Assembly (NCBI GenBank): GCA_021234155.1
Contig: JAJEKV010000110.1
Location: forward strand, 436,187-500,186
From: Isoetes taiwanensis
Lineage: Eukaryota > Streptophyta > Lycopodiopsida > Isoetales > Isoetaceae
DNA: 64,000 nucleotides
Direction: 5' to 3'
Positions 5,460-64,000 of the stretch are shown in pieces; the first letter of the stretch is position 1, and each line of letters begins with the position of its first letter. Under the pieces are notes generated by a model. It saw only the letters and a program-made list of their open reading frames with translations, had not been told where the DNA came from and did not search any database. A program made the position numbers and the translations under genes.

Positions 5460-5479
5460 ATTATCATCTCCGTATAAAT

Positions 5480-6386: not shown

Positions 6387-6548
<162 letters not shown>

Positions 6549-9775: not shown

Positions 9776-9800
9776 GCTTATCTCTGTATCATCTCTGTAT

Positions 9801-31749: not shown

Positions 31750-31761
31750 TTCTCCCCCCTT
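31750..31761 (-). other. Polypurine tract
   Basis: Minus-strand aaggggggagaa adjacent to the LTR start, the site where plus-strand DNA synthesis is primed in LTR retrotransposons. Confidence 0.75.
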
Positions 31762-31785
31762 GGAATAATATTGTCCTTAGCATTG

Positions 31786-32526: not shown

Positions 32527-32765
<239 letters not shown>

Positions 32766-34870: not shown

Positions 34871-34937
34871 AAAACAGACCTCACAAAGCAGACACAAGAA
34901 GAAAGCAAAGCAGATAATCATACAAGCATACCAGTGT

Positions 34938-36528: not shown

Positions 36529-37103
36529 CCCTCCTCATGGAAACAAAACAAACACAACAGGGAAAAACACAAGGAAAACACAAGGAAATCTGAAGCTCAC
36601 ATGGTTAGGTACGCAGGCCGGCTCCAAGCTCAGGATTTATAGACTGTAAGAGGGCCGGATTCCCCATCTTATCCACTTCCAGCTTGCCAGGAACAGAAAG
36701 AGGCACCTTCCAAACATAGCGCCTGCATCAAACCATGCACCCGACATGCTTGCCCACATCCGGCTGACTCCACAAATACAGCGACACAATTTGCCCTATT
36801 TCCATACTAAATTTCATACACTACATAACTTTAACCTTTAAAACCATATGTCATAAACATACGGTTTCACAAACTGGGCCAGCTTATTGCGAAGTAACCC
36901 AATCATGCCACGTAAAGTTCGGAGGGAGGATATTTCGCCATATTTCAGGCCCATCTTAAAACAGATAATCGCTTCCTCTCCTCCGATGTTGGCTTCATCT
37001 CCTCCGATGCTGGCTGATAACGGAGTAATCAAACTTTTGTGGCTACGATGGCGCCATGTGGCAAGAAATATCCTCCCCCCCTTAACTTTACCGTGAGAAA
37101 ATA
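36529..37103. other. Intergenic spacer, nothing firm
   Basis: Spacer between the divergently placed HUH gene and rpL10. A 13-base tandem duplication (tcctccgatg..ggct) occurs at about 36977-37017. No promoter element can be placed with confidence. Confidence 0.45.
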
Positions 37104-44768: not shown

Positions 44769-45176
44769 AAAACACTCTTGTTAATGCAAAGATATGGCAA
44801 ATGAGCCGTAGCCAGTGTTCAATCACCCCCCTTAATCTACAACACATAAATCGGCTGCTTCAACCCGATACATGAACTTATGTTTAATCATTGCAAAATT
44901 GCCTGAATGTATTTCTTTTGTGAGAGTGCAAGTTTACCCGACTTTCTATTCTGTTTGACTTCAATCTGTCTTCCAGGAGGAGATTGATGTGGATGCTACC
45001 ATAAATGCTATCATTCTACCAAGACATCATGGGAGAGTTTCAAGCCAAGATAGCCCTTCATTAGTAGAATTTCCCCTTCCCTATACATAGGGTACTTTGC
45101 ACCTAGAACAACTCTTCGCGCCACACTGAGCGATGTTCCAAACATCGACAAGTACTTAGAAAATAGAGCTGCTCGC

Positions 45177-47911
45177 ATGCCTGATTATATGACCATATCT
45201 ATAAACAGGAAGAGATACTTCTCATCAACTGCTGCTGTAGCCATCTTCTTGTCCTATAGAGCCCAAACTCAAATAGAAGAACCCTCTCTTCAGCCAGTGG
45301 ACGAAGGATCAGAACAGGAGGGGGAGGAAGAAGGCGGACGAGGCCATGGCGTCGAAGACCTCGTCGACGTCGACCCTATCCAACAATGGCAGCAAGCAGA
45401 ACAAGATCTTCAGAGCTTCGACGAAGGCTTGAGGGTGACGAGGACAGCTCCCCCCTCGGGTTAGGCATCACCAGCCTAACCCCAGTCATCATCGAAGACC
45501 AAGAGTACCTGATGATGCACGACATAAAGAACCTTCTAGAGTGCAGAGACAGGGTACAGAATTGACGAGCTCCTACACCTCCTGCGCCAACAGCCCGATC
45601 TCGATGACTTCATCGACCGAAAAATGAAAGACTTCCCTATCAGCATCAGGGAAGCCCACACCTATACCGGGCAGTGATCATTCGACATCGAAGCCTATAA
45701 TAATATTCAGCAGAAGATGACATCTCAGAGGAAGAATTCATCGCCATCCAAGAATGAATGGGCATTAGGGGCAATACAACGAGCGCACTCCTGCCCAGCT
45801 CCTCATCAGCAGTGCCAATCGGGGTCGAAAGAGGCGGGATCAACTTGACCTCCTCCAGGTGGACATGTTTGCAAATTACATGGACCTGACAGTATAGTAC
45901 CGGTGGATGAATACTCCGGGAGGTACAGAGCTGGCATCAGAACCGAAGAAGAGGCAGGAGAGGGAGGACGTGACAAGGCCCTCGAGTTCTATCTTCTGCT
46001 CCTCACCAACGGAAGGATAATAGTGATACATCGACAGTTCATCCCATGGAGAGAAGAAGGGGTGTTCATGCTCATTGCCCTCTCAGGATTTGGTAGACAT
46101 GCTCGGATGCCTCCAAACATCGACCATGTCATACTGGTGAAGAGGACAAAAGCCCTGAGGATCTTCGACTTCGCAGTCCCATACAGACGTCAGGGCAGAT
46201 TAGCCGTCACTGTGGCCTATATGTTAGACCGAAGAGTAGAAGATTTGATAATGGCATTGCAAGGTGGTACGCCCACCAATATTCTCAGGAACTTGGGACA
46301 TACGGTTGGTACATCCTAAGTGAAGAAATTCTTGGAAGACAACCTAGTATATCGAAGATTTCAAAAATAGTCTAAACTTTTCTCTCTATTAATCATTGTA
46401 ATAATATTATATCTTATGAATATATTTGTTGGGATTATGAATGTTCTTTGATATATTTTGTTCCCACAATTATATCATCAAACAACCAATGCAACAACAA
46501 ACAAAAGCTAATCATAAGAGTGCAATCTAATGTGTATGCAGCTAGAGCAACCAGGAACGTAGAGCAAAATCGACACCCTCAGGAAGAGAAACCCCCCTCC
46601 CCAAAGACGATTTCAACTAAGGAACCTATACCAAGAGTTCGAGGCACCAATCCTAGAAGAGGAGATATTCCAGATGAGATCGGATATCCAGGATATAAGA
46701 GCTTTACTTGAAGGAAGGGCAGCAATTCCACCAGACCAGAATGCCCAGCTACCTCAAACACCTGCTGACAAAACAGAAAAGGCAAGGAAGAGAAACTGGA
46801 GAAGGAGATCCCCCAGCACGGATTCCTCCAACACCAGTTCCAACTCCGACTCAGAATTGGAAGAGTAGGATAACGATCGGCAAGATCGCCGGGAAGGTCC
46901 AAACCGTGATAAAGGCAGGAACGGGGCCGACTATCAGAAGAAAGTGACTCGGCACTGTGGAAGTTAGAACAGTTCTCAGGAGATAACAGGTTAGGGATGG
47001 AAGCTGAAGCTTGGTTGGACGAGATGAAAGAGTATGGGAATGCTTATAGCATGAAAGGTAAGGACAAGGCAGAGTAGCGGCAGCCAACCTCAAGGGAGCG
47101 GCCAGAATTTGGTGGAAAGGCTATGCCAAGGCCCATGGGTTAAGCAGGGATAGCTACAGATTCAAGAAGTTCTCCAAGGCATTTAAGCGTCATTACGTGC
47201 CAAGGGAAGACGCGTGCCATGTGATGCAACCGTTTTATAGGTTGGAGCAGGGCAATAAGATGGTGCAGAAACCGAAGAATTTACGAGGTTAAGGCTCTAT
47301 GTGCCAAAGTGGAGCGAAAGACATGCAGTAGAGGGGTATGTTGAAGGCTTAAACGAGGAGATCAGTAGGAAGCTTATGAGAGCTATCAACCCCAGAAAAA
47401 GTATCAGAAGCAAAGTCCAAGGCCGTGAGCTTATAAGAAATAGGTCCCCCAAAGCAGTGGACAAAAGCAATCAGGATAAGGGGAAAGCTACTGGAAGCTA
47501 TAGTCCAAGAGCAACAAGCCCAGTAATTGCTAGACCTCAGTACAATGCAAACCATGGAAAGCAAGGAAATGCAAATTTTGGAAGCAGGACAAGAAGCAGG
47601 TCAGTTTCAGGGACAAAGAGCAAGGGGGTGTTTCAAACTACTCCAACGCAGTGAAGCAATTCTTGCAGTCCATCCTGAAGTAGAAGAGACAAGAATGTAT
47701 AAAAAAGAAGTCGTGCTTCAGGTGCTTCCAACCGGGACATCGCACGCACAACTGTCTTTTTGTGATGAACGCGGCACTAGCAGAGCTAGAAGAATGGGAG
47801 ACACGCCCGATAACGACTTGCAACACATCCAAGGTGAGTGCCACATCTTTGCTGCCATTGACTCCGAGAATGCAGAGAATCAATATCAGGTCATCTCGAC
47901 AATAAAGAAAG
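45177..47911 (+). mobile_element. Ty3 element D, 5' part: pre-gag module and gag
   Basis: A relative of the element that follows. 45177-46319 holds broken frames homologous to the other element's 54219-55601 ORF: IIEDQEYLMMHDIK parallels LHNNQEYLLLDDIL, LDDFIDRKMKDFP parallels the matching DDFID stretch, and ALSGFGRHARMPPNIDHVIL parallels ALSAMAGHRKLPSNLHAVVI in the H2A-like part. Gag follows (about 46955-47300: KLEQFSGDNRLGMEAEAWLD, ARIWWKGYAKAHG), with a CX2CX4HX4C knuckle CFRCFQPGHRTHNC at about 47715. The frame ends abruptly at 47911, where the LTR of the next element begins, and pol resumes at 62844. Multiple frameshifts show it is dead. Confidence 0.8.
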
Positions 47912-49405
47912 TGTGACGCCCATGTAAGTATACGGTATACGTATACCACACCTGACACGTCACCAAGGTATTGGGAACATTGAGGATTAACATAAGAGGG
48001 ATTATTGGCATTAAACTAACCTAAGTACACTAACTAATGGTATTAGTTAGCCAAGTAGAGCTAGAATGTGCCACTTGGCCTCACTCGATTGGCCAAGGGC
48101 AGTTGCCATCTTTGAGTGGCAAAATGAGCTTCCCATCCTAGTTTTGCCCAAATTCGAGTTTGGGAAGAGCAGAGGAAGGAGGGAGCTGTTACAACCTAAT
48201 ACCTGACCAGTTCTATGGATGTTCTTCGAGACAATGGGTCCAGCCAGGACACAGGTCAGTCTTTAGGTAGTTGTATGCTATTCTAACCCTTGTTTGAGGT
48301 AGATGGTGGTTAGATTCTATGTTATGATCTATTTATGATGATTATGGACGTTGCATCTGATTCTGTTCTCTCTTTCTATTCCTCTTGTGATGTATGTGTT
48401 TAAGGGGGATAGAGACCTGAAAGCTATTTAGATTTAGTGATGTTCCTAGCTAGAACATCTTAAATCCCAGTAAATGCGGCCTGTGCACAAGAGCCCACCT
48501 GGCTGGGGATCCTATGATGTGATTCAGCACCAGATAACGAGTATGATGGTGAATCGGGGGTGAGGTCTTGCCTAGCGCAGCTACAGGACTCCTACAGTGT
48601 GCTAGGCTTATAGCTGGTCACGGAGAGGGCCGGGTATGGGTCTGACACTTCCTGGGTCGCAGGTGTCGAGCCAATATTCTTGGGCGCCCTGGGCTCGAAT
48701 GGGAAGGTGAGCCGGCCTTTAGATTTAGGGGAGTAAGTCGGGTACGAACGCGGGGGTCACTGAGGGGGCACGCATTCTCTAGCACACCCAGGGATCCATC
48801 ATGCTCGGGGAGGGGATGCCTCTCCGACCTGCCTCATCAGACCGGGGAGATGTAATCCGGAGTGGTTCCATAGGGTGATTCCATGGAATTGCATCTCCGG
48901 AAGGCTACAATCACGCCATAGCATGTTCCAACCTATCTGCAAAGTGTGCACAGGAGGGGCAGATGGAGTAGACTACCCTAGCCATTGTTCTATGCCAGCC
49001 AACACCATTGTTATGATTTTATCTGTTGTTATCCGGAGGCCTTGGCCGTCAGTTGATTTCCATGATCTGAGACGGGGTAGAGTCCTTATTTATGGTGCAT
49101 TTCCTTTATTATGATTGATGTTCTAGATGTCATGGGACTGATGATGATGGGCCACCTATCGTGATGGCATATTATTTGTTTGTATTGTTGCCAGGTGCGA
49201 ACCCTGTATATATGCTTCCGCTATCTAGGATTCCCATCGAAGGCGTGGGACGAATGACACCTCCATGTCCTTCACCCGGACACATGTCACCACACGTGGT
49301 CAGGGTTAGACAGAGGGCCTTTCTATAGTGGTATTATCGCCATGGAAGAGGGGATTTCCCGTATGTATATGATGGGAGCATCGTATAGATTCGCGGAGCG
49401 TCACA
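47912..49405 (+). mobile_element. 5' LTR of element C
   Basis: 1494 bp, starting TGTGACGCCC and ending GCGTCACA. It is followed after one base by a primer-binding site. Closely similar to 61442 onward and, more distantly, to the inverted LTR at 30247-31749. Confidence 0.93.
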
Positions 49406-49406
49406 A

Positions 49407-49418
49407 TGGTATCAGAGC
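49407..49418 (+). promoter_or_regulatory. Primer-binding site (initiator Met tRNA)
   Basis: tggtatcagagc, complementary to the 3' end of plant initiator methionine tRNA, one base after the LTR. It fixes the left boundary of the internal region. Confidence 0.92.
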
Positions 49419-50047
49419 ATGATTTTGGTGGACCAGATCATTGCACTGGCCATGTTCTAACCCGATAGAATGTTAAGCAATTGGGGACTCTAACATAGAA
49501 AAAATTCCTTAGCACATTGTAGTTAGTCTATTTGAGGCCCAAATTTGTGCTAACAGTGTAGTTGTGGAAAAAAAATTGGAGGTACAAAGGTAGAACTGTA
49601 TTGAGTTTAGAAGGAAATGGTCCTTCTTTTCCAGAGGCTATAACTTTCTTCAGAAAGCTTGGATTGGAAAAATTCTTATTCCATCGCGTCGGGGACCCTT
49701 AAATTAGCTTAGATCACCTTTCGGCCGACTCAAAAAGGTCAACATAAGAGAGAGAACCCTAAACCGGCGCAATCTGAGGGTTTTATTTTTGAATTCTAGA
49801 CGCTTAAAATGCAGAGTCCGCAAGTTTTGACCAAAGTTTGACTTTTTTTTTTAAAAAAAAAAATTTAGGGTATGAAGCGAACTCACGGACGTTGTAAGTT
49901 AGGGTTTTTTTATTGTTCTTTATGTTAGCCATGCCATCGCGACCTCCACTCGCCATAGCCACCGGAGTAACCAGTTCTGCCATACCTAGCCCTGCCTACT
50001 ATCCTGACGGACTCTGCCTGCTTGTGAGCATTCCACCTTGACTCGAG
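49419..50047 (+). other. Leader of element C
   Basis: About 630 bp of untranslated leader. No ORF of note. A t/a-rich run lies at 49844-49864. Confidence 0.6.
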
Positions 50048-51305
50048 ATGGCCCGCACTAAGGGAACAAGGAGTTATTCCAGCTGTAATGTCTTCCAACT
50101 CTTCGCCGAGCTTGGGTGCAACATCAGTGACACAATCGACGGTCCTAGGAGGGTCGAGCTCCTCCTCGAACAGTTAGTGCTCAGATTTATCGAGGGCGAC
50201 CGGATACCGTACCCCATGTTTCACCTTACAAGAGATATTCTTGCTGAAATTAAATGCTGAAGGGGAGACCTACACCTTGGTGGAGCAGGAAGACCAGGTT
50301 CTGGCCCCGGTTCGGTATTACCGCTCGGGCATGGCCCAAGACGCTGCTGATGCCAAAGCTCGTCGGGAAGCAGAGAGGATTATGTCGATGGCACAGGAGG
50401 AGGATGCCCGGCAAGCCGCAAACGGAGATCCGGCTATCAGAGGACAGGAATATGTGTATCTGGAAAGAGGAAGAGCCATAAGTCGGGGAAACAATTTTAT
50501 GATACCCCCATACTACTATGATGAGGACACCCAGATCTTCATATAGGAAGATATCTCGCCATCTTTTCCACAAGAGGATCTGCAGGCTGTCGAGCTTGAT
50601 ATGGCAGCCCGACATGATCGGTATATTGCCGAGATCCACAGAAGGACAGTGGTACGCCTGCTACGGGAGCAGCATGCCGAACAACAAGCAGCTCGGCTAG
50701 CTGAGGAGCAGGCCAGGAAGGAGGCCGAGGACGCTGCCAGACATGCAGAGGAAGCCGTTAACCCTGTTGAGGAGCCTGCCAATCGTGTCGAAGAGCCTGC
50801 TAACCGTACCATTCAACAAAAGCGGAAGACCACTAACCCGACGTGCTTGGGGCCCCAATATAAGACTCGGCTCCAAGCGATTGGGTGGGGGGAGGGGGTA
50901 GCAAAGCAGAGGGGGGACACTCGTCGGGAGACTTTAGTCGAGCGGGCCCGGCATCCAGCCACAGGGGGCAAAACTCTTCCCCTTGTTCCCCCACCTCGTC
51001 AGAGGAAGGCCCACCGGTTTAAACCAGGGACAGTGGCCTTGTGGGAAATCCGCAAGTATCAGAAGACGACGGAGCTCCTCTTGCGGAAGCTACCTTTTCA
51101 GCGGCTTGTCCGGGAGATTGCGCAGCAATTCAAGACAGATCTCAGGTTCCAGACCCATGCCATTCTTGCCTTGCAGGAAGCTGCCAAGGATTACCTCATT
51201 GCTCTCTTTGGCGATGCCAACCTTTGCGCAATACACGCTAAGCGCATGACTATTATGCCAAAGGATTTGGCCTTAGCACGTAGGATTCGCGGGGATCGAA
51301 ACTAG
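50048..51305 (+). pseudogene. Retroelement histone ORF: H4-like fold, coiled coil, H3 core
   Basis: Starts MARTKGTRS, echoing the H3 tip. Residues about 13-70 (NVFQLFAELGCNISDTIDGP, RRVELLLEQLVLRFIEGD, FHLTRDILAEIK) align with the H4 fold, including IS at helix 2, R-x-V and V-x-R inside it, and D-I-L-x-x-I-K against H4 DVVYALK. A frameshift (about 50240-50262) and one in-frame TAG (50544-50546) follow. A helical Glu/Ala/Arg-rich region spans 50601-50760. PATGG (50955-50969), as in H3 before its core, precedes an 11-residue insertion. 51006-51305 is then a complete H3 core ([56 protein letters not shown]) stopping where H3 normally stops. Histones wrap DNA; the role in the element is unknown. 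Confidence 0.88.
51006..51305 (+). other. Histone H3 fold domain within the retroelement ORF
   Basis: All H3 core helices are present without gaps, from the alpha-N helix to alpha 3. By eye, about 21 of 99 residues differ from canonical plant H3 as I remember it. The H3-H3' four-helix bundle residues (Cys and His of NLCAIHAKR, Asp of MPKD) are kept. Changes include Arg to Trp in VALWEI and Glu to Gly in LFGDAN. The modifiable N-terminal tail (K4, K9, K27 region) is absent here. Confidence 0.95.
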
Positions 51306-51319
51306 ATTTTCCATTTTTG

Positions 51320-54085
51320 TATTATAACTGTATCATTTTGTATATCAGTTTTGTAATTAATACAATATGGCATCTTAACAGCTATGTGTATCACTGTTTG
51401 ATCTTTCATGCAAACAACACACACAAAGCTCGGGCTCTATCATGGGGGAAACTAATCAACATTCTATTCTGGGAATTAAGTGCTACCAAACCTCTCAAGC
51501 TATCAACTTGTTGGGAATGCCTTTATCTTTGGACACAAATATTAAGGGTCTCTGGTCCCCTATCCTTTCTCGGATCAAAAGGAAATTAAATAATTATGGT
51601 AACTGCTTGTCCCTTGCTGGCAGATCCATCATTGCAATTTGTGATTGCAAGCTCTCATATCTACTTCTCCTCTGCCTTGCTTGCTCCAAAAAATATCTAT
51701 CTTCAGCTTGAGAGAATAATTAGAAATTTCCTTTGGGGAAAGAATCAATTGGTCAGCTGGAATCACATTACAAGATCTAAGTCTCATGGTGGTGTAGGTT
51801 GCCAAAAATTGTTTCTTCAAGGAATTGCCCCAGCTGGCAAACATGTTTGGAGGGCAATTTTTCATAAAGATAACCCATCCTCTGTATTTATTAAATATTG
51901 GTTTCAGAAATGTGGAATTACAGGGCATCCCTCTAACAGTCATCAACTTCCCTCCTCTATTTTCTTTGGTATCAATCCTGCTAAGAACATCTCCCCTCTC
52001 ATGAGGAATTTGGTTATAGCCTGGAACAAGATCTCTAAATTTTTGGCTCACAATAAGCCTGATCTTTTTCAGATGAGCACATCCATATTTTGAAACCCTT
52101 TCTTATCTAAGGAAAATGATATTCCTCTTGCTATCAATCATCTCAAGATCTATAAGAAATGGTCTCATTGTGGAATTACTTCAATTGGGGATCTTAGAAT
52201 AGATGACAGGTGGACCTCATGGACTGCTCTCAAAAGGAAAATTTATGGAACTTCTTCTGATAGGGGGTGTAAATTCTTTGGTGGTGTACAACTTTCCGCG
52301 ACAGCACTTAGCACATAAAGCACTTAGCTAATACAAAATTTGATATTACGAAATAATTATATTAGTTGGTACCTCATTTTTCCTACTTTAATGTTTTAAA
52401 GACACGTTTATTATTTGTAATACTCAATTTTCAAACACAATATGCATGTCAAATTCATGTTGGATGTGAGATTTTTAGCAGTTAAAGCACTTGTCTGGAC
52501 AGTGCTTTTTGACCACCAGTAAAGAATTTACACCCTAGGAGCCTTTTCAAGCATCTAAAAGCAAAATTATTTTTCCTGAACCTGAGTACCATGAACTCTC
52601 ATATTGACTGGTCTTGCAAGGGGAAATATAACTATAAAGTCTCTATGATTTATAAATTGTTAGCTTACAACAATACTCCTTCAAAAGCTAAAGTTTACTG
52701 GAACCTAAATGATGAAGAAGTTTATAAAGTTCACAAGAACACCTGGCTATCTTACTGCCTTCCAAAAGTTTCTTACTTCATTTGATTGCTGGCCAACAAG
52801 AGCTTATCTAATCTAGAGAGCACTATAATCCTACTAGATGGAAATTTGGCCTTAATCCTATTTCTAACAACTGCCCTCTTGGTTGCAATAGCATTGAGTC
52901 TATGGTCCATATTTTTAACTGTCCTAAATTAGAACCTCTTTGGACATGGTGTCAAAATGTTTTATTCATCAATAAGCCAAATAACTTGATTGATCTCTTG
53001 ATGAATAATGACAAGTTTGTTAATACCTTATTCTTCACTGTTTTATGGAATATATGGAAGCACAAGAACAGATGCATCCATGGGGGACATGCTATATCTA
53101 TTTATTGGATTAAGATTAATATCATGCATGACTTGCAAACATCTGCAACTGCTCACAGGGTTCAAAATGAAGAGAAGAACTATGATAATAGATGGAACTC
53201 TATTGGTTCTTTTTGTGGTCAATATAAACTGTTTAATTTACAGTGTTCTCAGACACATACTTCATGTTGATGCTAGAGTACCTGGAGTTTTGTAACCGAG
53301 TCTTGGACACAAGCTTTGACTGTTTCGAGGCTGAGAGAAATTTAAATCACTTTGACACATAGGTCAATGCCTTTGCTGACTATGATTGGAAATCCAAAAT
53401 ACCAGACAGATTGTTCCCAAAGCTTCATGAAATCCAGTCAGGGAGATTCAATGGGCATATGAGTTCTGTAAGAGCACCTATCAGTTGAATATCCTATTTT
53501 GGTTTCTGGAGATAAACCACATGTAGATGACAGATAGCCAGTTCGAGTTTTACAGAGAATGTTATTATTATCACAGGCAAAGCAGATGCATATGGAAATC
53601 TCATGCTTATCATGGCCATCTCTTGTGTCAATGATCTTCTGGAGGCTTTGGATTGGGGAAGTAATATCAACCACATTTTACAGCCTGCATTCATTGACCA
53701 CTTTTCCTATCTTGACCATTAAAACCAACTCATATCATAATTTTCCTGATTCTCTCACATTTTGACTCAATTTTGTCTACACAGGTTTTTATTCAGTTTG
53801 ATCATCTTATCTGATCAGTTAAAGGACAATCGAAGTTCTACAACTACTTATGCTGATGCTTCTTTCTATACTACTTTTCAAAGCATATATATGCTAAAAC
53901 TATTAAAACTGGTTTTGCCTTTAATTCTGGCTTTAATAGTTATTAAGCTTAGTATCTTCTATAAATCCTATAGCAACAACATGTTGCTCACAATGTACTT
54001 TTTGATCTTTAATTAATGGAAAAAATATCTCATTCTCTCAAAAAATAAAAATAAAAATAAAATAAAAAATAAATAAATAATATTA
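51320..54085 (+). mobile_element. LINE (RT C-terminal part to tail) inserted between the histone ORFs
   Basis: 51442-52090 encodes the palm-to-thumb end of a LINE reverse transcriptase (INLLGMPLSLDTNIKGLWSP, RIKRKLNNYGNCLSLAGRS, LERIIRNFLWGKNQLVSWN). 52540-53270 encodes the C-terminal zinc-binding region (CPLGCNSIESMVHIFNCPKL, VLWNIWKHKNRCIHGG). An A-rich tail with AAAAT units ends at about 54085, so the element lies in plus orientation and is 5'-truncated. The left boundary is not exact and I found no clear target duplication. A MITE interrupts it at 52265-52535. Confidence 0.88.
52261..52539. mobile_element. 271-bp MITE inserted in the LINE
   Basis: Terminal inverted repeats gggtgtaaattctttggtgg (52265-52284) and ccagtaaagaatttacaccc (52516-52535), with a short gap near the inner end, are flanked by the duplicated tagg (52261-52264 and 52536-52539). 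Taking out the MITE and one tagg restores the LINE reading frame across the site. No coding sequence. The superfamily is undetermined. Confidence 0.85.
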
Positions 54086-54218
54086 ATGATAAAGTAACAG
54101 ACCTTATAGAATATTCCCTAATAAAAGCCCCATCCTTTAAAACGTGCCCCTACTTTTTAGGGTTTCATTGTTATTTAGCCTCCTCTATTTTTGCTCCTCC
54201 TCCTTCCAGCAAGCTGCC
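54086..54218 (+). other. Leader before the H2A-like ORF, possible splice acceptor
   Basis: Element C sequence right of the LINE tail. A pyrimidine-rich tract ending ctccttccag (54200-54209), ten bases before the ATG, looks like a 3' splice site, so the downstream histone ORF may be expressed from a spliced message. This is inference. Confidence 0.35.
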
Positions 54219-55601
54219 ATGGATTATGCCAAGCGCCAGCAGTGGTACCAAGATGGGAAACACTGGGATTATGACGTCCCATTTGAACTTTTCCACCCTT
54301 ATCTTGTACAACAGGTGGACATCATAACAAATATGGAGGCTCACCCGGATTATGCCGATTTCTTGGAGTTCTACACCTAAGAAATGGTGCCCCAATACTG
54401 ACCTTATGGCAATCCCCCATAGCTCTATCTTCACATGGACATACTCATGCAGATGCTTGGGGATGACCGCCATGCTGAAGATACTCTTCGAATCCAGCGC
54501 TGTGCCAAACATGCCCCCATTCTCCGATTCGGCCGTCAGCATACCTATTTTGAGGTCTGCTTTGCTTTGGCCATTCTTATGGACCAACATGCGGAAGCTG
54601 ACTCCACTCCATTGGAAAAGGGGAAGGTACCTATTCCTGACGACCCCGAAGAAGATGAGCGCATAAGTCATATCGACTTCGCCCATTGGAAGCAGCTCGC
54701 CACCGACCAGCCCGTGTCCCGAACTCAGGGCCACAAACTCGCTGAATTAGATGGACTTCCTACAGTCCTTCACAATAATCAAGAGTACCTACTGCTTGAT
54801 GATATTTTGTGGGCGTACCATGTAATCGCCGACTCCCGGGCTATGCGCAAAGACCTTGTTTTGTATGAGCTTGCAGAATATTGTCAGGATGATTTTATTG
54901 ACTTTTCACCTCCTGAATATCCTCCATAGATCCAGCAGTTGCTTAGGTTCCACCCCGAGGATCTAGATCCTGTTGAAACTTTGCTGCAGCTGAGGCATCT
55001 GATGCTCCAAGATCCTCCTTCTTTCCCGTCTGAAGACGCTTTTGCCACTATAATGGGGCCACACGTCCCTAACATTAATGATGTGGCCATACCGATGGAA
55101 GAGGACGAAGAGGGGGAAGATCTTTACGACAACAAGGAGCATCTCAAAGAGGAGAATAAAGAGGCCTATGAGGAGCAGATAACCGTGAACCTTGAGGCAG
55201 AAGTGGCGACCTCCACAGATCCAGAGATAGCAGCCTTGAAGAACCATCTCACAAGGTTCTTCCTCTCAGCTTTTCGCCAAGTTCAGCTCTTATTCTTTGT
55301 TAGAGCACTCGCTCCAGAGGCCGAGGCATATTTTTGGGCACTAAAGGCCTTGTCCGCTATGGCCGGACATAGAAAGCTTCCTTCCAACCTTCATGCTGTG
55401 GTGATTATAAATCGCGATTTAGCACTTGCTGCTTTAGGCCAGGACATCGCCACCTGGATGAGCATGAAGATGCTAGTAGCCGCACCATTGGCTACAGCCT
55501 TCCCTGCCGCCATTGCCTCAGCATCCGCCCTCATGATCAGCCCCGGTGTTGCTTTGCTCCGCCAACGACAACCACCAGAACCTCCTACAGATATGGACTA
55601 G
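54219..55601 (+). pseudogene. Retroelement ORF with C-terminal H2A-like fold
   Basis: One frame of 461 codons from ATG 54219, broken by four stops (54378, two more before 54423, and 54927). The N-terminal two thirds are unrecognised but have a counterpart in element D (NNQEYLLLDDIL). A very acidic linker (EEDEEGEDLYDNKEHLKEEN, about 55100-55160) precedes a domain at about 55236-55464 resembling H2A. FVRALAP aligns with H2A RVGAGAP. AMAG matches the end of helix 2. IINRDLALA-x-x-x-x-D aligns with H2A IIPRHLQLA-x-x-x-D. A hydrophobic alanine-rich tail follows. Acidic stretches next to histone folds are common in histone chaperones. Cellular role unknown; H2A identity is inferred by eye. Confidence 0.6.
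55236..55464 (+). other. H2A-like histone-fold domain
   Basis: Spacing of the V-x-A-x-A-P loop-1 motif, the helix-2 end (AG) and the II-x-R-x-L-x-L-A helix-3 motif all follow H2A, with a few residues' difference in length between helices 2 and 3. Divergence is much greater than in the H3 domain. Confidence 0.55.
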
Positions 55602-55755
55602 GATGCAGGACCTAGTTCCTGAGTATCATTTTTTTGGGGTCTTATTGTTTGGCCTTTGGCTATCCTTGTATGTATTACTCATATAGGCAATTTTGTGCCG
55701 ATTAATTAATAAAAACTATAGTTTCCTTGTATTGATTGTCCTTTTTCCCTGCTAA

Positions 55756-56151
55756 TCATTTATACGTAGCACCTTGAATTATCAATTAAGTATTGCTACA
55801 CCACCTGTTAGAGGGATAGCCTTGCCACAACACTCCGCCAACGTGTGGGAAATTGTCATGCTCCTTCAGGACAAGGTCGTCCGCAACTTACAATGCAAGA
55901 TGCAGAGGGGTTGGGACTATTCGGAGACCATTAGTGTGGATGCTTTCCACGATATTGACGATAATCTCTGGCAACTTTACGGAGCGATGAATGACTTATT
56001 TAATCTTTTAATTATAAATCCAATCCTAATGTATCAGGACATCATCATCGAAGCGTGGCATAAATATAACTTAGTAAACTCAGTGAGGGAGGACTTTATT
56101 GATTATATACTGTATCCCTTTGGGGAACCAATGTATAATCGTCAAGTATAA
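55756..56151 (+). pseudogene. Short ORF with H2B-like fold
   Basis: Open from 55756 to the stop at 56149-56151, about 131 codons. The first ATG (55858) lies inside the fold, so the ORF probably starts by splicing (a candidate acceptor cgtag lies near 55769) or from a fusion. ANVWEIVMLLQDKVV could be helix 1. ISVDAFHDIDDNLWQLYGAM parallels H2B ISSKAMGIMNSF. NPILMYQDIIIEAW parallels PTITSREIQTAV. LVNSVREDFIDYILYPF has the pattern of the H2B-specific C-terminal helix. Similarity is weak. An H4-type fold or an unrelated helical protein are alternatives. Its place right after the H2A-like ORF supports the reading. Confidence 0.42.
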
Positions 56152-56299
56152 CCATTTTCTATAGGATATAATTTCAATTCGGTTCATCCTTTGGGACTTC
56201 TTTTGAATGTAAATTTTCATCCTCTTTAATGATAAATCTTTTCTTTTACATTACGAGCAATGTGTGCATGTTGTGCTCATTTTCTTTTTATTGATATTT

Positions 56300-57440
56300 T
56301 AGATGGTGCACGTCCCCTTCCGTGTGTGATGCCCATGGAACCAGGCCGCCTTATGCCTGAGCAAGAACTGCTTATCATTAAGCGACACATGGCGTAACTT
56401 CAACAATACGTCCTCCAAAGGCCTATAGGCCCTGTCATGGCAGAAGAGGGGCCAGAAGTGCCGGTCACCGAGGTGGCCCCACCCACACCAACACGATCTA
56501 AACGTCGCCGCCATTCTTCTTCTTCGAACAGTAGTTCTGACTCATCAGATTCTGATGATTCTTCTGATTCCGCCAGTACTAGCATCTAGAAAAATCGCAG
56601 ACTTGCTCGGTTCTCCGGCATTAACCGTTCTGGTGTAGATGTAGAGTCCTGGCTCGATGAGATGCCCAAATTCGGTAAATCTTATGGTATGACAGACAAA
56701 GATATTGGTAAGGTTGCCACCACCAACCTCACTAAGTCCGCAAGAATCTAGTGGAAGGGGTATGCACGTTCGCATGTGCTTAATAGGGGGCATTGCAAGT
56801 TCAAAACCTTTGCCAAGGCCTTCAAGACCCATTATGTTCCTCGGCACATCGCTGCAAACAGATACAGACATTTTATCGTTTGGAGTAGTGCGGCATGAGT
56901 ACAGGCCTATACCAATGAATTCATACGCCTCAGACTTTATGTCCCAGGGAGTCGAAGGTTACGTCGAGGGGTTATCACCCACATTAAGGAAGACGGTCCG
57001 TGCCATTGATCCCAAGACAGTAGCAGAGGCTGAAGCAAAAGCCCTGAGTTTGGAGGAAGACACACCAAAAGCACCTTACCAACAACCTCCAACTGCAACC
57101 CAGATCAAGCCATATATTCCTTATAAGGCCCGTTCTCCTAGTCCAGGATCCCCTCAACAACCTCCTTATCAAAAATCAAAAAAGAAAGTCACCTTCAATG
57201 TTCCTGATAAGTTGGGTGCCCCGGATGCTGCAGTGCAGCAGCTCCTCCAGTCTCTGCCACAAAATGCTCGGGATCAGCTCCGACGTGACAAGGCCTGTTT
57301 CCGTTGCTTCCGTCCAGGTCACCGCATGCAGGAATGTCCCTATATCAATCAGACAACACAGGCAGCCCTGACTGAAGTTGATTGGGACAAGCTGACACCT
57401 TTTTGTGATCTCCCACCTTTGGCGGACGAGGAGCCGACTG
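56300..57440 (+). pseudogene. Gag of element C (capsid and zinc knuckle)
   Basis: The N-terminus (MPEQELLIIKRHMA) has a stop, then a Ser/Asp-rich patch (SSSSNSSSDSSDSDDSSDS). The retrotransposon gag core spans 56595-56990 (RFSGINRSGVDVESWLDEMP, WKGYARSHVLNRG, FAKAFKTHYVPR, YTNEFIRLRLYVP), with stops and at least two frameshifts. A proline-rich linker leads to the zinc knuckle CFRCFRPGHRMQEC (CX2CX4HX4C, about 57297-57338). Gag forms the virus-like particle and binds element RNA. A strong splice-acceptor-like tract (gatattttag) precedes it at about 56294-56303. Confidence 0.9.
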
Positions 57441-57499
57441 ACTATATACAAAGTGAGTCCCACATTTTTGCTGCTATTGAGACCAGTCAGGCCGAGTCT

Positions 57500-57909
57500 C
57501 AACCTAGTGTCATCTCTACAGTGGGCCAAATTGATAGCAAACCCTTCATTATCCTTATGGACACGGGTAGTACGCATAATTTTGCATCCCCTAGGTTGGC
57601 GAAACTCTGCAGTTAACCTCTTTGAAATCTAAGACCAGACCAGTCACATTGGCTAGTGGAGCTGTTCACCACACCCAAGGCCGTCGTGTTACCCTGAGCA
57701 TCCAGTTACCAGGCGCACCTGTCACTTTGGGAGCTGAGCTCATGAATCTTGGGAAATATGACTTGATTGTGGGAATGGAATTTCTCGCAGCAGCAAAAGC
57801 AAATATAGATTGTGAGAAGCGTGTTGTCACCTTCAATGCAGCGAATGGGGCCCGCATCATGATCACAGGTAATGCAGCACATCCTATTATGCAGTGCATC
57901 TCCTTTTGA
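57500..57909 (+). pseudogene. Protease of element C
   Basis: IILMDTGSTHNFASPRLAKL (about 57550-57610) has the canonical DTGS catalytic site of retropepsins. After a frameshift at about 57612 the fold continues with VTLASGAVHHTQGRRV and YDLIVGMEFLAAAKANIDCE. The frame meets a stop at 57907-57909 before the RT. Confidence 0.92.
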
Positions 57910-57912
57910 CAA

Positions 57913-59395
57913 TTGGATAAGGCCATTCGACATAGACAGGTGGCTTGTATTGCTAAGCTTGCATCCTTTGAAGCCTGGCAAGCGGAAAGCATTCAAGGCT
58001 TGACTCTGATTATAGCCAGCCTTATTCACGAGTTCCAGGATCTCTTTCCAGATGAGATTCACAAGTTGCCACCTTTTAGGGGGGTAGAGTGTGAAATTGC
58101 ACTCCAACCAGGTACCAAGCCTACCAGTAAGGTCCCTTACCGCATGAGTACACCTGAGTTAGCAGAGCTTAAGAAGCAGTTACAGGAACTTTTGAAATTA
58201 GGATTCATTCAGCCCGATGTGTCACATTTTGGAGCCCCTATCTTGTTTGTTAAAAAGAAGGATGGGACTTTGCATATGTTTATCGATTACCGCCAGCTCA
58301 ATAAGCATATTATTAAAAATCGATATGCGTTACCAAGGGCCGATGACCTTATGGATCAGCTACAAGGAGCTAAGTATTTTTCCAAGGTAGATCTTCGCTC
58401 TGGCTACCATCAAATACAAATTAAGGAGGAGGACATTCATAAGTCCGCATTCGGTACCCGTTATGGACATTATGAGTTCACAGTTATGCCTTTTGGACTC
58501 ACTAATGCACCAGCAACCTTCATGTGTCTCATGAACGATGTCTTCAGAGACTATTTAGACGCGTTTATCATTATTTTCTTTGATGACATTCTCATCTACA
58601 GTAAGATCCTGGAGGATCATGAAGGTCATCTTAAACTGGCACTCCAGAAGTTGCGGCGCCACCAATTGTTTGCTAAGTTCTCCAAATGCAAATTTGCGAC
58701 CAGTGGGTCGAGTATTTGGGACATATTGTTACGGATCCAGCAAAAATTGAGGCAGTTAAAGACTGGCCGGCTCCTACCAATGTCTCAAAAGTCAGAAGTT
58801 TTCTGGGATTGGCAGGCTACTATGGTAAACTCGTTAAGGATTTTGCTAAGATTGCAGCACCCCTTATTGACCTAACCAAGCATGAGAGGGTCAAGGATTA
58901 GGCAATACATTGGAAAAGCAAGGTTCAATCAGGGTTCCAATAGTTGAAGGATGCCTTATCGTCGGCACCCGTCCTTACTTTACCTGATCCTCTCAAAAAT
59001 AAGCTGGTTGCCACCGATGCCAATAAGATAGCCACAGGCGCTGTTTTGATGCAAGAGGGACGAGTCATAGCCTATGACTCTAAGAAAATGAATGACGTTG
59101 AACATAGATATCCCACTCATGACTAGGAGTTGCTTGGGGTCGTCCGTGCCTTGCGCATCTGGCGACATTATCTTCTTGGACGGCAATTCCAACTAGACAC
59201 AGATCACGAAAGTCTGCAATATATCTTCACACAAGCGAATCTCAATCTTCATCAACGGAGGTATATAGAAGTTTTGGAGGAATATGACTTTGGGGTTCTG
59301 TACAAACCTGGCAAACACAATGTCGTTGCAGATGCCTTATCTCGGCATCCGTACCACACGTACCCATTGCAATGCTATTTCCACTCTTGCAAGTG
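57913..59395 (+). pseudogene. Reverse transcriptase and RNase H of element C
   Basis: The RT motifs are in order: [46 protein letters not shown], and the active site [12 protein letters not shown] frameshift at about 58690 leads to [19 protein letters not shown] and [20 protein letters not shown]. RNase H (58944-59395) has VATDANKIATGAVL, ELLGVVRALRIWRHYL after an in-frame stop (59124-59126), and DTDHESLQYI. It ends with the ADALSRHP connection. The FFDD form of the polymerase box is shared with the inverted element at 33590. Confidence 0.95.
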
Positions 59396-59479
59396 AATTT
59401 AGGAAGACTGCTGAACAATCTCTTCCAACGGATCCTGAGTTCAACGAAGTGTGGGCCAGCCTTTCAAAAGAGGCCAAGA

Positions 59480-60809
59480 CAGATAAGGAGAGGTAATCTT
59501 TTATATTACCGCGACAAGTTATGTGTACCCGACTCATCAGGAGTTAGACGACTTATTCTCCATGACACGCATAACAGTCCTATTGCGGGTCATGGCGGCT
59601 TCATGAAAACATATTTCAAGATAAGATCCAGTTACTTTGGCCTGGTATGAAGAAGCATATTGCGCGCTACATCAAACAGTGCCAACTCTGCCAGCAGACA
59701 AAGGCAAAACAGCTAAGAACACCATGTACACTGGAGCCTTTGGATATCCCCAATGCAAAATAGGAAGTCATTACCATGGACTTCATTATGGGTCTCCCAC
59801 GCACACTTCGCGGATTTGACGCCTTGATGGTGGTAGTTGACAAGCTTTCCAAGATGCCACATTTCTTGCCATGTCGTACCACCGACACTGCCTTGGATAT
59901 GACACTTTTATTCTCCAAGGAGATTTTTTGGTTCCATGGGATGCCACGCACCATTATCTCCGATCGTGATCCAAAATTTGTTAGTGCTTTCTGGAAGGAC
60001 TTTTTCCACACTATACAGACCAAATTTGTCATGAGTACCGCCTATCACCCTCAGATAGATGGGCAGTCAGAACGTACCAATAGAATTATTGAGGATATGC
60101 TACGGAATTATGTCTGGAATAAGCAATTTCAATGGGCAGATTACATTCACTTGGTAGAATTTGCCTTAATAGTACTAAACAGGAGTCCTCAAGGATGTCT
60201 CCCTTTATGATCACTTATGGTTATCAATGTCTTACTCCAGATACGTGGCATAACCCAGTTTCCAAAGTGGCAGTTTCACAACAGTTGCTTACAGATATGC
60301 AAGCGGTTGAGGAGGTACGAGGATATCTCTTGGCTGCACGAAGTCGCCAAAAGAGTTTAACGGATAGACACCGTACCCCGCGTGAGTTCCAGGTTGGTGA
60401 ATCGGTGTGGTTGAAGATTAAGGTTAAGCAGGCCAAGCTTAAAATTGGGAATTGCAAGAAGCTAGCACCACGATGGGCAGGACCATTTCAGATCATGGAA
60501 TGGATAGGTCCTCAAGCATATAAGTTAAATTTACCTGCTCATCTAAAAGTACACGAAGTCTTCCATGTAAGCCTTCTGAAGAAGCATACCCCGGATCCTC
60601 ATGAGATTCTTGATACACCAACTCTTCTGGAGATGACGGACGAACAATTGGAAATTGTTCCAGAGGCTCTTCTTGACAGAGCATATAAGCAAACCAGAAG
60701 AACCCAGATATTGCAATATTTGGTTAAGTAGAAACACTTACCCACTGAGGATGCTACCTGGGTGCTTAAACAGGAGCTTGACAAGGCTTACCCTGACTTC
60801 ATGCAATAA
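59480..60809 (+). pseudogene. Integrase of element C with C-terminal chromodomain
   Basis: The zinc finger HDTHNSPIAGHGGFMKT ... CQLCQQTKA (59570-59710) precedes the catalytic triad: D in TMDFIMGLP (59779), D in ISDRDPKF (about 59960) and E in GQSERTNR (about 60070). The GPY/F module (WAGPFQIMEWIGPQAYKLNL, about 60475-60535) is followed by EALLDRAYKQTRRTQILQYL-VK, then KHLPTEDATWVLKQELDKAY and PDF. This is a chromodomain of the chromovirus type (60660-60809), with its tryptophan codon now a TAG (60729-60731). Stops and two frameshifts occur. Chromodomains direct integration to chromatin with particular histone marks. Confidence 0.93.
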
Positions 60810-61441
60810 TGTCAGGGGCGGACCATCCACGATGCTATCGACTCTGACTCCAATGGTATGTCATTGTGCAGTAGATCCGATAGGGGTCATACAGGGGGAT
60901 TGGGGTAGACGCATCCTAGGATTGGGGGTTGGGGAGGGGGGACTGCATTTGAGCATCTTAGGCCGCAACTGTCTCTGGCTAAAATAGGAACAATGCCATT
61001 CCTTATGCCGCGACGACTTGCAAGCCCTAACTAGGCATTATAGGATTCTCTTCATTCCAGTTTCTCTTTATTTATTTATTTTTTTTTACTAAGGGGGTGG
61101 TCCCTTCAACCACAACTTTCTATAATTAATTTGACTGCTGACGTACTATCATTCTACAGGTGTGTAGTGCACACAGCAGCATCTGCAGTTTGGATGTCTC
61201 ACTTTCGGAGTCATGATATGTTGTTTTATCTGTGTCTTTATGGCCACTAAGGGCCTTGTTGTCATGCATAATCAGTGTGTTAAGTTATGGTGTGAAAGGA
61301 ATCCGATCCGCAACTTTGACCGTTCATGATCGTTTTGTAATCTCCTATATTTTATAAAAAAGTATCTACTCTCCTTTTCTTTTACTAATGATTCTCTCTC
61401 CCATCCTTAATGCCGAGGACAACATTATTCTGAGGGTAGAA
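60810..61441 (+). other. 3' untranslated region and polypurine tract of element C
   Basis: Non-coding; part of it (60976-61120) is shared with the inverted element at 32527-32652. The purine-rich ctgagggtagaa (61429-61440) directly before the LTR is the likely polypurine tract. Confidence 0.7.
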
Positions 61442-62843
61442 TGTGACGTTCTATATAAGTATACGGTATATGTATACCACACCTGACACGTCACCAAGGT
61501 ATTGGGAACATTGGGGATTAACATAAGAGGGATTATTGGCATTAAACTAACCTAAGTACACTAACTAATGGTATTAGTTAGCCAAGTAGGCTAGCTAGAA
61601 TGTGCCACTTGGCCTCACTCGATTGGCCAAGGGTAGGTTGCCATCTTTGGGTGGCAAAATAAGCTTCCCATCCTAGTTCTGCCCAAATTCGAGTTTGGGA
61701 AGAGCAGAGGAAGGAGGGAGCTGTTACAACCTAACACCTGACTAGTTCTATGGATGTTCTTCAAGACAATGGGTCCAGCCAGGATACAGATCAGTCTTTA
61801 GGTAGTTGTATGCTATCATAACCCTTATTTGAGGTAGGTGGATGGTTAGATTCTATGTTATGATCTATTTATGATGATTATGATGCTGTATCTGATTCTG
61901 TTCTCTCTTTCTGTTCCTCCTGTGATGTATGGGTTTAAGGGGAGTAGAGACCTGAAAGCTATTTAGATTTAGTGATGTTCCTAGCTAGAACCTCTTAAAT
62001 CCCAGTAAACGCGGCCTGTGCACAAGAGCCCACCTGGCTAGGATGCTATGATGCGATTCCATTAGGGTTTTTTTGAGATTAAAAAAAGGCCTTCAAAACA
62101 TGCCAACTAAGCCAAATGAAGATAAATGAACTACCAATCAGAAATCAGAGCCTGACAGGTCCAGTCAGCAAAACTGTTATAACTAACTCACTGGATCACA
62201 TTTTCTAGTATAACTATTGATAGAAAAGTCCAAATGAGCTCTCGTTTTCTTTCCAACCTTAGGTGCTTTGCACATATTTTAACCACTTATAATTGTCAAA
62301 ACTCCAAAAAATATAGTTTTTACCATTTTTTACTATCCTACGGGGTTAAAAAATATGCAAACCACCCAAGGTTGGAAAGATCTCAATGAGATATATCTAT
62401 TGCACCAAACAAAAGCTCATTTGGACTTTTCTATCAACAATTATGCTAAAAAATGTGATCCAGTGACTTAGTTATAACTGTTTTGCTGACTGGATTACCA
62501 GTTCTATTTTCTGATTGGTAGTTCATATAGCTTAGTCAGCAGTTCTTAGAAGGCCCTTTTATGATCTCAAAAAATCCCTAATGAGCACCAGATAACGAGT
62601 ATGATGGTGAATCGGAGGTGGGGTCTTGCCTAGCGCGGCTACAGGACTCCTACAGTATGCTAGGCTTATAGCCGGTCACGGAGAGGGCCGGGTATATATG
62701 GGTCTGACACTTCCTGGGTCGCAGGAGTCGAGCCAATATTTTTGGATGCCCTGGGCTCGAACAGGCAGGTGAGCCAGTCTTTAGATTTAGGGGAGTAAGT
62801 CAAGTACGAACGCGGGGGTCACTAAGGGGGCACGCGTTCTCTT
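61442..62843 (+). mobile_element. 3' LTR of element C, interrupted and truncated
   Basis: Starts TGTGACGTTC and follows the 5' LTR closely up to 62060. It is interrupted by a 523-bp fold-back MITE, resumes at 62584 (agcaccagataacgagtatg) and stops at about 62843 inside the sequence equivalent to 48775. The last 630 bp of the LTR, including the end, are missing, and element D sequence begins immediately. Confidence 0.92.
62061..62583. mobile_element. Fold-back MITE inside the 3' LTR
   Basis: Ends cattagggtttttttgagat (62061-62080) and atctcaaaaaatccctaatg (62564-62583) are inverted copies. The inverted similarity continues inward for more than 200 bp on each side (actaccaatcagaaa / ttctgattggtagt; agtcagcaaaac / gttttgctgact; gatagaaaagtccaaatgagct / its inverse), so the transcript would form a long hairpin. 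The 5' LTR shows the uninterrupted site (gattcagcaccag). I see no target duplication. Confidence 0.9.
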
Positions 62844-63655
62844 AATTGATTGTGGGAAGCGAAAAGTCACCTTAGTGGCACCAAATGGCAAAGTCATTGA
62901 GATAACGGGTAAAAAAGTCATCCCAATCATGCAATTCATGTTTAGTAAGAAGTTACTTAGATGCATAAAGAAAGAGCAAGTGGCCTATGTCTTTAAGCAT
63001 GAAGTTGAGGAGCCAGAAACAGATGAAGACAAGGAGGCCAAAGTATTGAACAAGCTGCCGAAGCCAATAACGAAGCTAGTGAAGGAATTCCATGATTTGT
63101 TCTCGGTTGAGATCAAGCAACTTCCACCTTACAGTGGAGTCAAGGTGAAATAGCACTTGAACCAGGGGCTAAGCCAACAATTAAGGCACTTTATAGAATG
63201 TCACCTCAGGAGTTGACGGAATTGAAGAAGCAGTTGTAAGAGTTGCTAGACCTAGGGTTTATAAGACCTAGTGTGTCTCCATTTGCGGCGCCAATCCTAA
63301 TTGTCAAGAAGAAAGATGGAAGTCTCAGAATATGCATTGACTATCGTCAATTGAACAAGCACACCATCAAGAACAAGTATGCACTGCCTCGATCAGATGA
63401 TTTGATGGATTAACTGCAGGGAGCAAAAGTTTTCTCCAAGATAGACTTGAGATCAGGCTACCATCAGATCAGGATCAAGGAAGAAGACATTCATAAGACT
63501 GCATTCAGGACGAGATATGGCCACATTACGACTTCACAATGATGCCATTTGAGTTGCCCAACACCCCAGCAACATTCACGAGACTCATGAACGACATTCT
63601 CCCTGAGTTTCTAGACACGTTCATCATAGTTTTCTTTGATGACATTCTAATCTAC
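62844..63655 (+). pseudogene. Ty3 element D, 3' part: protease end and RT
   Basis: Begins IDCGKRKVTLVAPNGKVIEI, the counterpart of IDCEKRVVTFNAANG in element C. It continues with FHDLFSVEIKQLPPYSGVK and, in shifting frames, RT motifs ([50 protein letters not shown]). Three or more frameshifts and stops are present. With 45177-47911 it makes up element D, split by element C and lacking about 300 bp of the protease. It breaks off at about 63655. Confidence 0.85.
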
Positions 63656-64000
63656 AACCAGGGTAATAAAGAGTGGCTAAAATTCGCCAAATGGCGATTT
63701 TTTAGACCTTTAGTCAAATTTCATGGCTAAAGTTTATAAATGCAATTTTTTTAGAAAAAGCATAATTTAGCCACTCCAAAAGGGGGTAAATTCTGAACGC
63801 TTAAAGTTTAGCCGGTATTGTTTGTTGCATGGTGTACTGAATCGCCTTCTCTAAAGTTGATTAGGAGAACCTTGATCAATTCAAATAGCCATGCCAATTC
63901 TATTCAGGAACCTCTTTCATTTAGGAATTGCCATTAGCTACCTCAATCCTATTTTGAATTTGTATCTATAAGTTGTTTAGGTTAAATGCTATGAATAATG
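63656..64000. other. Window end, nothing recognised
   Basis: After the RT breaks off, the sequence is AT-rich and without recognisable coding content. The repeated words 'gtggctaaaattcgccaaat' and 'tttagccactccaaaa' hint at another inverted-repeat element cut by the window. Confidence 0.4.

What the first reader, a model, noticed from the sequence alone, without database searches (positions are those of the whole stretch)
47912..62843. A Ty3 chromovirus that appears to carry its own core histones
Directly seen: LTR, primer-binding site and all pol domains bracket an H3 core between primer-binding site and gag. Inferred by alignment: H4-like, H2A-like and H2B-like folds in the same pre-gag region, which would give all four core-histone types in one retrotransposon. 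Known parallels are histone doublets and sets of some giant DNA viruses; I know of no established LTR retrotransposon with such a set. Possible roles are packing cDNA, shaping chromatin on the new insertion, or escaping silencing by marks on host H3 tails. All of these are speculation.
Basis: partly seen in the sequence, partly recalled or inferred. Interest (0 to 1): 0.97.

Follow-up and report, generated by a model that had tools for sequence, protein, structure and literature searches.

The report
Retrotransposon family carrying histone H3
A family of jumping genes in a plant genome (probably a quillwort) carries its own copy of histone H3, the protein that packages and marks chromosomal DNA, and selection has conserved that histone, while the other three core histones that were suspected were not found.

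Summary
The window holds a decayed Ty3 chromovirus (LTRs, PBS, gag, RT, integrase, chromodomain) whose first frame after the PBS (ORF A, broken here) ends in an H3 core. H4, H2A and H2B were not found, with single sequences or with multi-copy profiles of the ORF A N-terminus, ORF B and ORF C. The host genome (1.658 Gb; by size very probably the lycophyte Isoetes taiwanensis) holds many related copies. In 20 of 20 loci fetched on H3 hits a 411-464 aa frame holds the H3 core (at its end in 19); ORF B, ORF C, gag and RT follow on the same strand in 19, 14, 16 and 11. Of 14 long frames chosen by the N-terminal domain, 14 hold H3. One copy with both LTRs has a perfect 5-bp TSD. The 18 element H3 cores tested form one clade. 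H3 is the most constrained part (dN/dS 0.03-0.06; RT 0.074) among undecayed copies. Most core contacts (recalled) are kept; the usual tail with K4 and K9 is replaced by a long extension. Most likely a working, tail-swapped H3 variant used with host H4; its exact role is inferred. My searches found no report of a retrotransposon-encoded histone.

The parts
47912..49405 (+). 5' LTR, 1494 bp, TGTGACG...CGTCACA
49407..49418 (+). primer-binding site TGGTATCAGAGC, exact
   Evidence: exact PBS also upstream of ORF A in 14 of 20 fetched copies
50048..50257 (+). ORF A, first piece (N-terminal domain), starts MARTKGTR; that start is not shared by the other copies read
   Evidence: aligns with residues 0-65 of ORF A of L028 and L017 (13-62 of L027)
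50220..50543 (+). ORF A, second piece, in another frame
   Evidence: aligns with residues 54-162 of ORF A of L028 and L017
50601..51305 (+). ORF A, third piece after a stop codon: linker and histone H3 core (core 51012-51299)
   Evidence: Pfam Histone 5.5e-38; PDB H3.3 1.5e-48; 77 of 96 residues equal to host H3
51410..54085 (.). foreign insertion of about 2.7 kb, LINE-like by eye (no Pfam hit for the piece tested), ending in an A-rich tract; boundaries approximate; not part of the element
   Evidence: GC drop
54219..55601 (+). ORF B, broken (4 stops in 460 codons), no known domain
   Evidence: conserved in other copies (alignment A3)
55774..56151 (+). ORF C, no known domain
   Evidence: conserved in other copies (alignment A4)
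56303..57613 (+). gag region with zinc knuckle and start of the protease, broken
57913..58875 (+). reverse transcriptase region
   Evidence: RVT_1 7.8e-34
59776..60731 (+). integrase core and C-terminal SH3-like domain in two overlapping frames
   Evidence: rve 2.8e-08, SH3_Tf2-1 1.3e-21
60600..60806 (+). chromodomain, interrupted by one stop
   Evidence: Pfam Chromo 8.6e-07 with X at the stop; no chromodomain hit for the two halves apart
61442..62842 (+). 3' LTR, truncated, with an inverted-repeat insertion (about 62060-62583)

Best explanation
SHOWN: this is a decayed copy of a Ty3/Gypsy chromovirus lineage that carries three extra reading frames between the PBS and gag. The first, ORF A, encodes a conserved N-terminal domain of about 190 aa of unknown fold, a variable linker, and a complete histone H3 core. 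The H3 has one origin in the sampled copies and is under strong purifying selection. INFERRED: after capture from a plant host (probably from spliced H3 mRNA), the protein acts as an H3 variant. It pairs with host H4, enters nucleosomes through the normal core contacts, and replaces the usual H3 tail (K4, K9, K14) by the element's own N-terminal extension. The most likely use is to put nucleosomes that cannot carry H3K9 methylation on the element's new DNA copy, while the N-terminal domain recruits or excludes other factors. Sub-confidence: H3-bearing chromovirus lineage 0.97; core works as a histone 0.7; role on the element's own DNA against silencing 0.3.
For: Architecture: 20 of 20 fetched loci (20 of the 36 H3 hits in open frames of at least 400 aa, my count) hold the H3 core in a 411-464 aa ORF A, at its end in 19; on the same strand ORF B is found in 19, ORF C in 14, gag in 16 and RT in 11 of 20 (the 9.9-kb stretches often end before RT); exact PBS in 14. 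Chosen by the N-terminal domain instead: 9 of 12 with H3 within 1.5 kb; 14 of 14 long frames hold the H3 core. Copies with both LTRs: L022 with K2P 0.0225 and TSD GTGGC; L023 with K2P 0.0513 and TSD 4 of 5. Selection, same loci, 9 to 20 copies a region, pairs with dS 0.05-1.5, median dN/dS: H3 core 0.031, RT 0.074, gag N 0.079, ORF C 0.085, ORF B 0.120, ORF A N-term 0.135, gag C 0.150; in the N-terminus-chosen long frames 0.060 against 0.127. Tree: 18 distinct element H3 cores on one side of a branch, 99/98. 65 of 96 core positions are invariant and equal to host H3 in 19 rows; of the residues that I recall as DNA, H3-H3' and ASF1 contacts most are kept (varying: R42, K53, K64, S86, Q125, A127, E133), while changes in at least 80% of rows are at 60, 86, 87, 89, 102, 105, 107, 124. 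No intron in the H3 core.
Against: No expression, protein or chromatin data. Loci chosen by H3 score bias H3 dN/dS downward; in N-terminus-chosen copies of any state it is 0.132 against 0.114 for the N-terminus (7 and 35 pairs), where two of the seven H3 copies hold stops. Constraint on the core does not tell what the protein does. Tail loss would also fit a role as competitor or tether. The window's own start MARTK looked like an H3 tail but is not shared by the other copies, so that idea was dropped. A lysine at about the K27 place survives in many copies, so not every silencing site is lost.
Confidence: 0.5

Rival explanations
1. Targeting: the H3 part is deposited in host chromatin and the N-terminal domain, or the element's own chromodomain binding that H3, tethers the integration complex there.
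For: The element has an integrase chromodomain, a type of domain that in chromoviruses reads histone H3 (recalled). ORF A keeps both a conserved N-terminal domain and the H3 core.
Against: No insertion-site data; hits lie on many contigs. No test of binding.
Confidence: 0.2
2. Decoy or competitor: ORF A protein sequesters H4, histone chaperones or silencing enzymes without being part of nucleosomes on the element.
For: Changes common to all or most element H3s include 86, 87 and 89, next to the H3.1/H3.3 chaperone-specificity patch (recalled), and 102, 105, 107.
Against: Most DNA-contact and H3-H3' residues that a pure decoy would not need are kept, and the core is more constrained than RT in the loci compared.
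Confidence: 0.15
3. Packaging: the H3 helps pack the cDNA or the pre-integration complex, with host H4, H2A and H2B.
For: Giant DNA viruses encode histones that form nucleosome-like particles (abstracts in the listing; passages of PMC9145170).
Against: Only H3 was found; no H4, H2A or H2B. Reverse transcription in particles precedes nuclear entry (recalled).
Confidence: 0.1
4. The element carries all four core histones.
For: By-eye resemblances; weak local matches of an ORF B piece to H4 (p 0.054) and of the outer element's ORF B piece to H2A (p 0.068), among 36 comparisons; three helices in a poor model of the N-terminal piece.
Against: No Pfam, PDB-profile or profile-profile support with alignments of 18, 13 and 9 copies; the best profile-profile probability with H4, H2A or H2B was 1.1% (ORF B with H4). 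One histone domain per ORF A in the 3 proteins tested.
Confidence: 0.03
5. Passenger: an H3 gene fragment picked up by chance (transduction) with no role.
For: Plant retroelements do capture host gene pieces (recalled).
Against: dN/dS 0.03-0.06 in the two sets of open frames, the lowest of the element regions compared, kept across subfamilies whose N-terminal domains are only 29-36% identical to that of L017.
Confidence: 0.02

Closest known systems
Ty3/Gypsy chromoviruses of plants
   Same: LTR ends TG...CA, PBS TGGTATCAGAGC, gag zinc knuckle, RT, integrase and C-terminal chromodomain in that order
   Different: Three extra frames (A, B, C) before gag, the first ending in a histone H3 core
Single captured histones of DNA viruses, e.g. 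bracovirus H4 (passages of PMC9145170 read)
   Same: One histone, 81-86 of 96 core residues equal to the host's, within the 73-89% range given there; thought to come from the host
   Different: Carried by a reverse-transcribing LTR element, fused behind a long N-terminal domain with most of the tail lost, and present in many genomic copies
Histone doublets and sets of giant viruses (Marseilleviridae, Medusavirus; search listing, passages)
   Same: A mobile or viral genome with its own histone
   Different: Those have H4-H3 and H2B-H2A pairs or all four; here only H3 was found, and it is close to plant H3
Bdelloid LTR retrotransposons with extra ORF3s (abstract of PMC5408684 read); Ogre-type elements with a pre-gag ORF (recalled)
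   Same: LTR elements with added ORFs, in Ogre also before gag
   Different: The abstract names env-like, esterase and exonuclease ORFs, no histone
Centromeric H3 (CENH3)
   Same: H3 core with a replaced N-terminal tail
   Different: No loop-1 lengthening; core close to canonical plant H3 (the CENH3 feature is recalled)

Membership tests
Ty3/Gypsy chromovirus | LTR pair with PBS; gag, RT, integrase in Ty3 order | tested here: met
   LTR pairs of L022 and L023
Ty3/Gypsy chromovirus | integrase C-terminal chromodomain | tested here: met
   Pfam Chromo 8.6e-07, 29.2 bits, cut-off 25.1, window copy with X at one stop
Ty3/Gypsy chromovirus | 5-bp target-site duplication | tested here: met
   GTGGC in L022, 4 of 5 in L023; not readable in the window because the 3' LTR is truncated; no LTR pair found in the 2.1 kb fetched for L012 and L027
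Histone H3 | complete H3 histone-fold core | tested here: met
Histone H3 | canonical N-terminal tail ARTKQTARKS... with K4 and K9 | tested here: not met
   alignment A1 of 19 ORF A copies; the seven host H3 loci translated have it
Histone H3 | incorporation in nucleosomes | not testable with these tools
   needs reconstitution or ChIP
Viral histone doublets / four-histone set | H4, H2A and H2B domains beside H3 | tested here: not met
   sequence and profile tests negative; by structure inconclusive
Single viral histone class | one histone 73-89% identical to the host's in the fold | tested here: met
   81-86 of 96 in 19 copies, 77 of 96 in the window; range from PMC9145170

The most novel reading that the evidence does not exclude
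A retrotransposon lineage that builds part of its own chromatin: it encodes a tail-swapped histone H3 that, with host H4, H2A and H2B, forms nucleosomes on newly made element DNA which the host cannot mark with H3K9 methylation, with a new N-terminal domain as effector. It would, as far as I know, be the first reverse-transcribing element known to supply a nucleosome component.
Probability: 0.3. Interest if true: 0.97.

Novelty: new variant of a known kind. Interest (0 to 1): 0.92.

Why it matters
Plants silence chromoviruses largely through marks on histone H3 (recalled). Here an element brings its own H3, under stronger constraint than its reverse transcriptase in the loci compared, with the usual tail replaced. 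This makes it possible to test directly whether a mobile element can write its own chromatin, and gives a natural experiment on what an H3 core can do without its tail. It also extends histone capture from DNA viruses to reverse-transcribing elements.

Tried and rejected

Not done for lack of an answer: whether H4, H2A or H2B also occur in repeated, fused frames in this genome (H4 query unanswered in 9 tries), and an ORF B count.
Full report
What is in the window. The element at 47912-62842 is a Ty3 chromovirus. Its 5' LTR is 47912-49405 and begins and ends TGTGACG...CGTCACA; one base further comes an exact TGGTATCAGAGC. Pfam finds a zinc knuckle (0.00078) and protease (0.0014), both below their cut-offs, RT (7.8e-34), integrase core (2.8e-08) and a Tf2-1-like SH3 domain (1.3e-21), and a chromodomain (8.6e-07) when one stop is read as X. 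The 3' LTR begins at 61442, carries an inverted-repeat insertion, and stops at 62842, 625 bp short of the 5' LTR's end, where an older Ty3 element resumes. The two LTRs differ by K2P 0.0596 over 867 sites. So this copy is old, damaged, and nested in another element.

The H3 is certain. ORF 50601-51302 matches Pfam Histone at 5.5e-38 and plant H3.3 in the PDB at 1.5e-48. The core is 51012-51299. In this copy ORF A lies in three pieces (50048-50257, 50220-50543, 50601-51305), split by a change of frame and one stop; they line up with residues 0-65, 54-162 and 181-410 of ORF A of L028.

Other copies. The genome search answered once for histones and once for the N-terminal domain. The window lies in an assembly of 1,658,258,908 bases in 1110 contigs. 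The Isoetes taiwanensis paper gives 1658.30 Mb in 204 scaffolds and 909 contigs (PMC8566536, passages read), so this lycophyte is very probably the host; that is inferred from size. One search had 8705 loose first-look candidates and scored 150, all over the cut-off. By my count of the table, 15 look like host H3 genes (profile from position 2; the seven loci that translated were canonical H3) and 36 of the other 135 lie in open frames of 400 aa or more without a stop. One search had 2772 first-look candidates and scored 150, all at E 1.5e-78 or better. The tool calls such counts lower bounds; I have no exact copy number.

I fetched 20 of those 36 (L009-L028). In 20 of 20 an ORF of 411-464 aa holds the H3 core, at its end in 19; in L014 the end of the frame differs. 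Downstream on the same strand, ORF B is found in 19, ORF C in 14, gag in 16 and RT in 11 of 20; an exact PBS lies upstream in 14. The stretches are 9.9 kb and often end before RT. By their N-termini 14 start MPRF-like, 5 start ME[ET].K, 1 starts MANTK; the window's copy is not clearly nearer to any of the three. To avoid choosing by H3, I took 12 loci by the N-terminal domain: 9 of 12 hold H3 within 1.5 kb. Of 14 more, chosen by the N-terminal domain and a long frame, 14 hold the H3 core at 88-96% identity to L017; in L048 the match ends after 72 residues, L046 loses the last few, and L047 has one stop. A long frame itself favours reaching the H3. For four loci I fetched the expected 3' LTR: L022 gave LTR K2P 0.0225 and TSD GTGGC; L023 gave 0.0513 and ACTGC/ACCGC; for L012 and L027 no pair was found in the 2.1 kb. 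About 2 kb between the two fetched stretches of L022 and of L023 was not read.

Selection. Nei-Gojobori dN/dS on 19 aligned ORF A copies, pairs with dS 0.05-1.5: H3 core 0.030 (79 pairs), N-terminal domain 0.131 (39), linker 0.205 (60). Between subfamilies dS is mostly saturated, but dN is 0.08-0.14 in the core against 0.70-0.78 in the N-terminal domain. On the same loci by one method, 9 to 20 copies a region: H3 core 0.031, RT 0.074, gag N 0.079, ORF C 0.085, ORF B 0.120, ORF A N-term 0.135, gag C 0.150. These loci were found by H3 score, which favours H3. In the N-terminus-chosen long frames the H3 core is still lower, 0.060 against 0.127. In N-terminus-chosen copies of any state it is 0.132 against 0.114, on 7 and 35 pairs, with stops in two of the seven H3 copies, as expected of decayed copies. 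I conclude that the H3 core is functional while the element is alive.

Origin. In a tree of 28 distinct H3 cores the 18 element rows (those that could be read without a stop by a simple motif) lie on one side of a branch with support 99/98, the host and other H3s on the other. In ORF A copies 81-86 of 96 core residues equal host H3, in the window 77. Most rows share E77, and all L90, with the host's H3. The core has no intron. This fits one capture of a plant H3, probably from mRNA; the donor lineage is not proven.

What changed. 65 of 96 positions are invariant and equal to host H3 in 19 rows. Of the positions that I recall as contacts with DNA, with the second H3 and with ASF1 most are kept; R42, K53, K64, S86, Q125, A127 and E133 vary. 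Changes in at least 80% of rows are at 60, 86, 87, 89, 102, 105, 107 and 124. The canonical tail is absent: upstream of the core stand only a remnant like RAKHPSTGGK and KPHR, then a variable linker with a basic stretch, then the N-terminal domain. An initial idea that the window's MARTK start is the H3 tail fell when the other copies were seen.

The other histones. The N-terminal domain (18 rows), ORF B (13 rows) and ORF C (9 rows) match no histone in Pfam or the PDB, and reach at most 1.1% probability in profile-profile comparison with H4, H2A, H2B and H3; the same comparison finds the H3 in ORF A at 100%. Each of three ORF A proteins has one histone domain. Among 36 shuffle comparisons of window pieces, the lowest outside the H3 ORF were p 0.054 (ORF B piece with H4) and 0.068 (outer ORF B piece with H2A).

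How it may work. What is shown is an H3 core kept as a histone by selection and attached to an element-specific domain. The rest is inference: with host H4 it should form tetramers and nucleosomes whose tail cannot be marked at K4 or K9. I think a role on the element's own new DNA, against H3-based silencing, most likely (0.3), before targeting (0.2), decoy (0.15) and packaging (0.1).

Literature. Of ten full-text searches of open-licence PMC papers, seven were aimed at such elements and three at Replitrons, viral histones and the host genome. None of the titles or shown abstracts describes a histone encoded by a retrotransposon; several lists were capped (15 of 123, 12 of 94). Six exact phrases for it gave no paper. 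Three papers hold Isoetes, retrotransposon and histone H3 together; I saw only the listing. In the main text of the viral-histone review PMC9145170 (passages read) the words retrotranspos and retrovir do not occur, and histone does not occur in that of the Isoetes genome paper. Subscription papers and preprints were not searched.

Noticed in passing
window 35775-36534, minus strand: Broken Replitron-like HUH endonuclease pieces (Pfam Replitron_HUH 2.1e-08 and, below the cut-off, 0.0005).
   Followed up: partly
window 45054-47911 and 62843-63660: An older Ty3 element into which the H3 element inserted; it has a diverged ORF B before gag (three collinear pieces). Its own ORF A region is not in view.
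   Followed up: partly
window 30247-34882, minus strand: A sister chromovirus: LTR 74% identical over 1412 alignment columns, RT pieces 66-81% identical to the H3 element.
   Followed up: partly
window 2244-10569: Two copies of about 4.1 kb, 88.8% identical, with many internal matches like tandem arrays.
   Followed up: no
window 62160-62494: Inverted repeat, 88-bp arms 91% complementary, inside the 3' LTR, like a small DNA transposon.
   Followed up: no
ORF C copies L010, L012, L017, L021, L022, L023, L026, L027, L028: A recurring GCAG or ACAG acceptor-like site about 130 bp upstream of the conserved ORF C core: perhaps spliced subgenomic RNAs.
   Followed up: partly
P0125: The highest RT identity among the 120 database hits listed is a 283-aa piece from a 1088-bp contig of the source 'jgi', 76% over 83%, so relatives may exist in environmental data.
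   Followed up: no
L038: An N-terminus-chosen copy whose H3 is only about 40% identical to the query: either heavy decay or a further H3 type.
   Followed up: no
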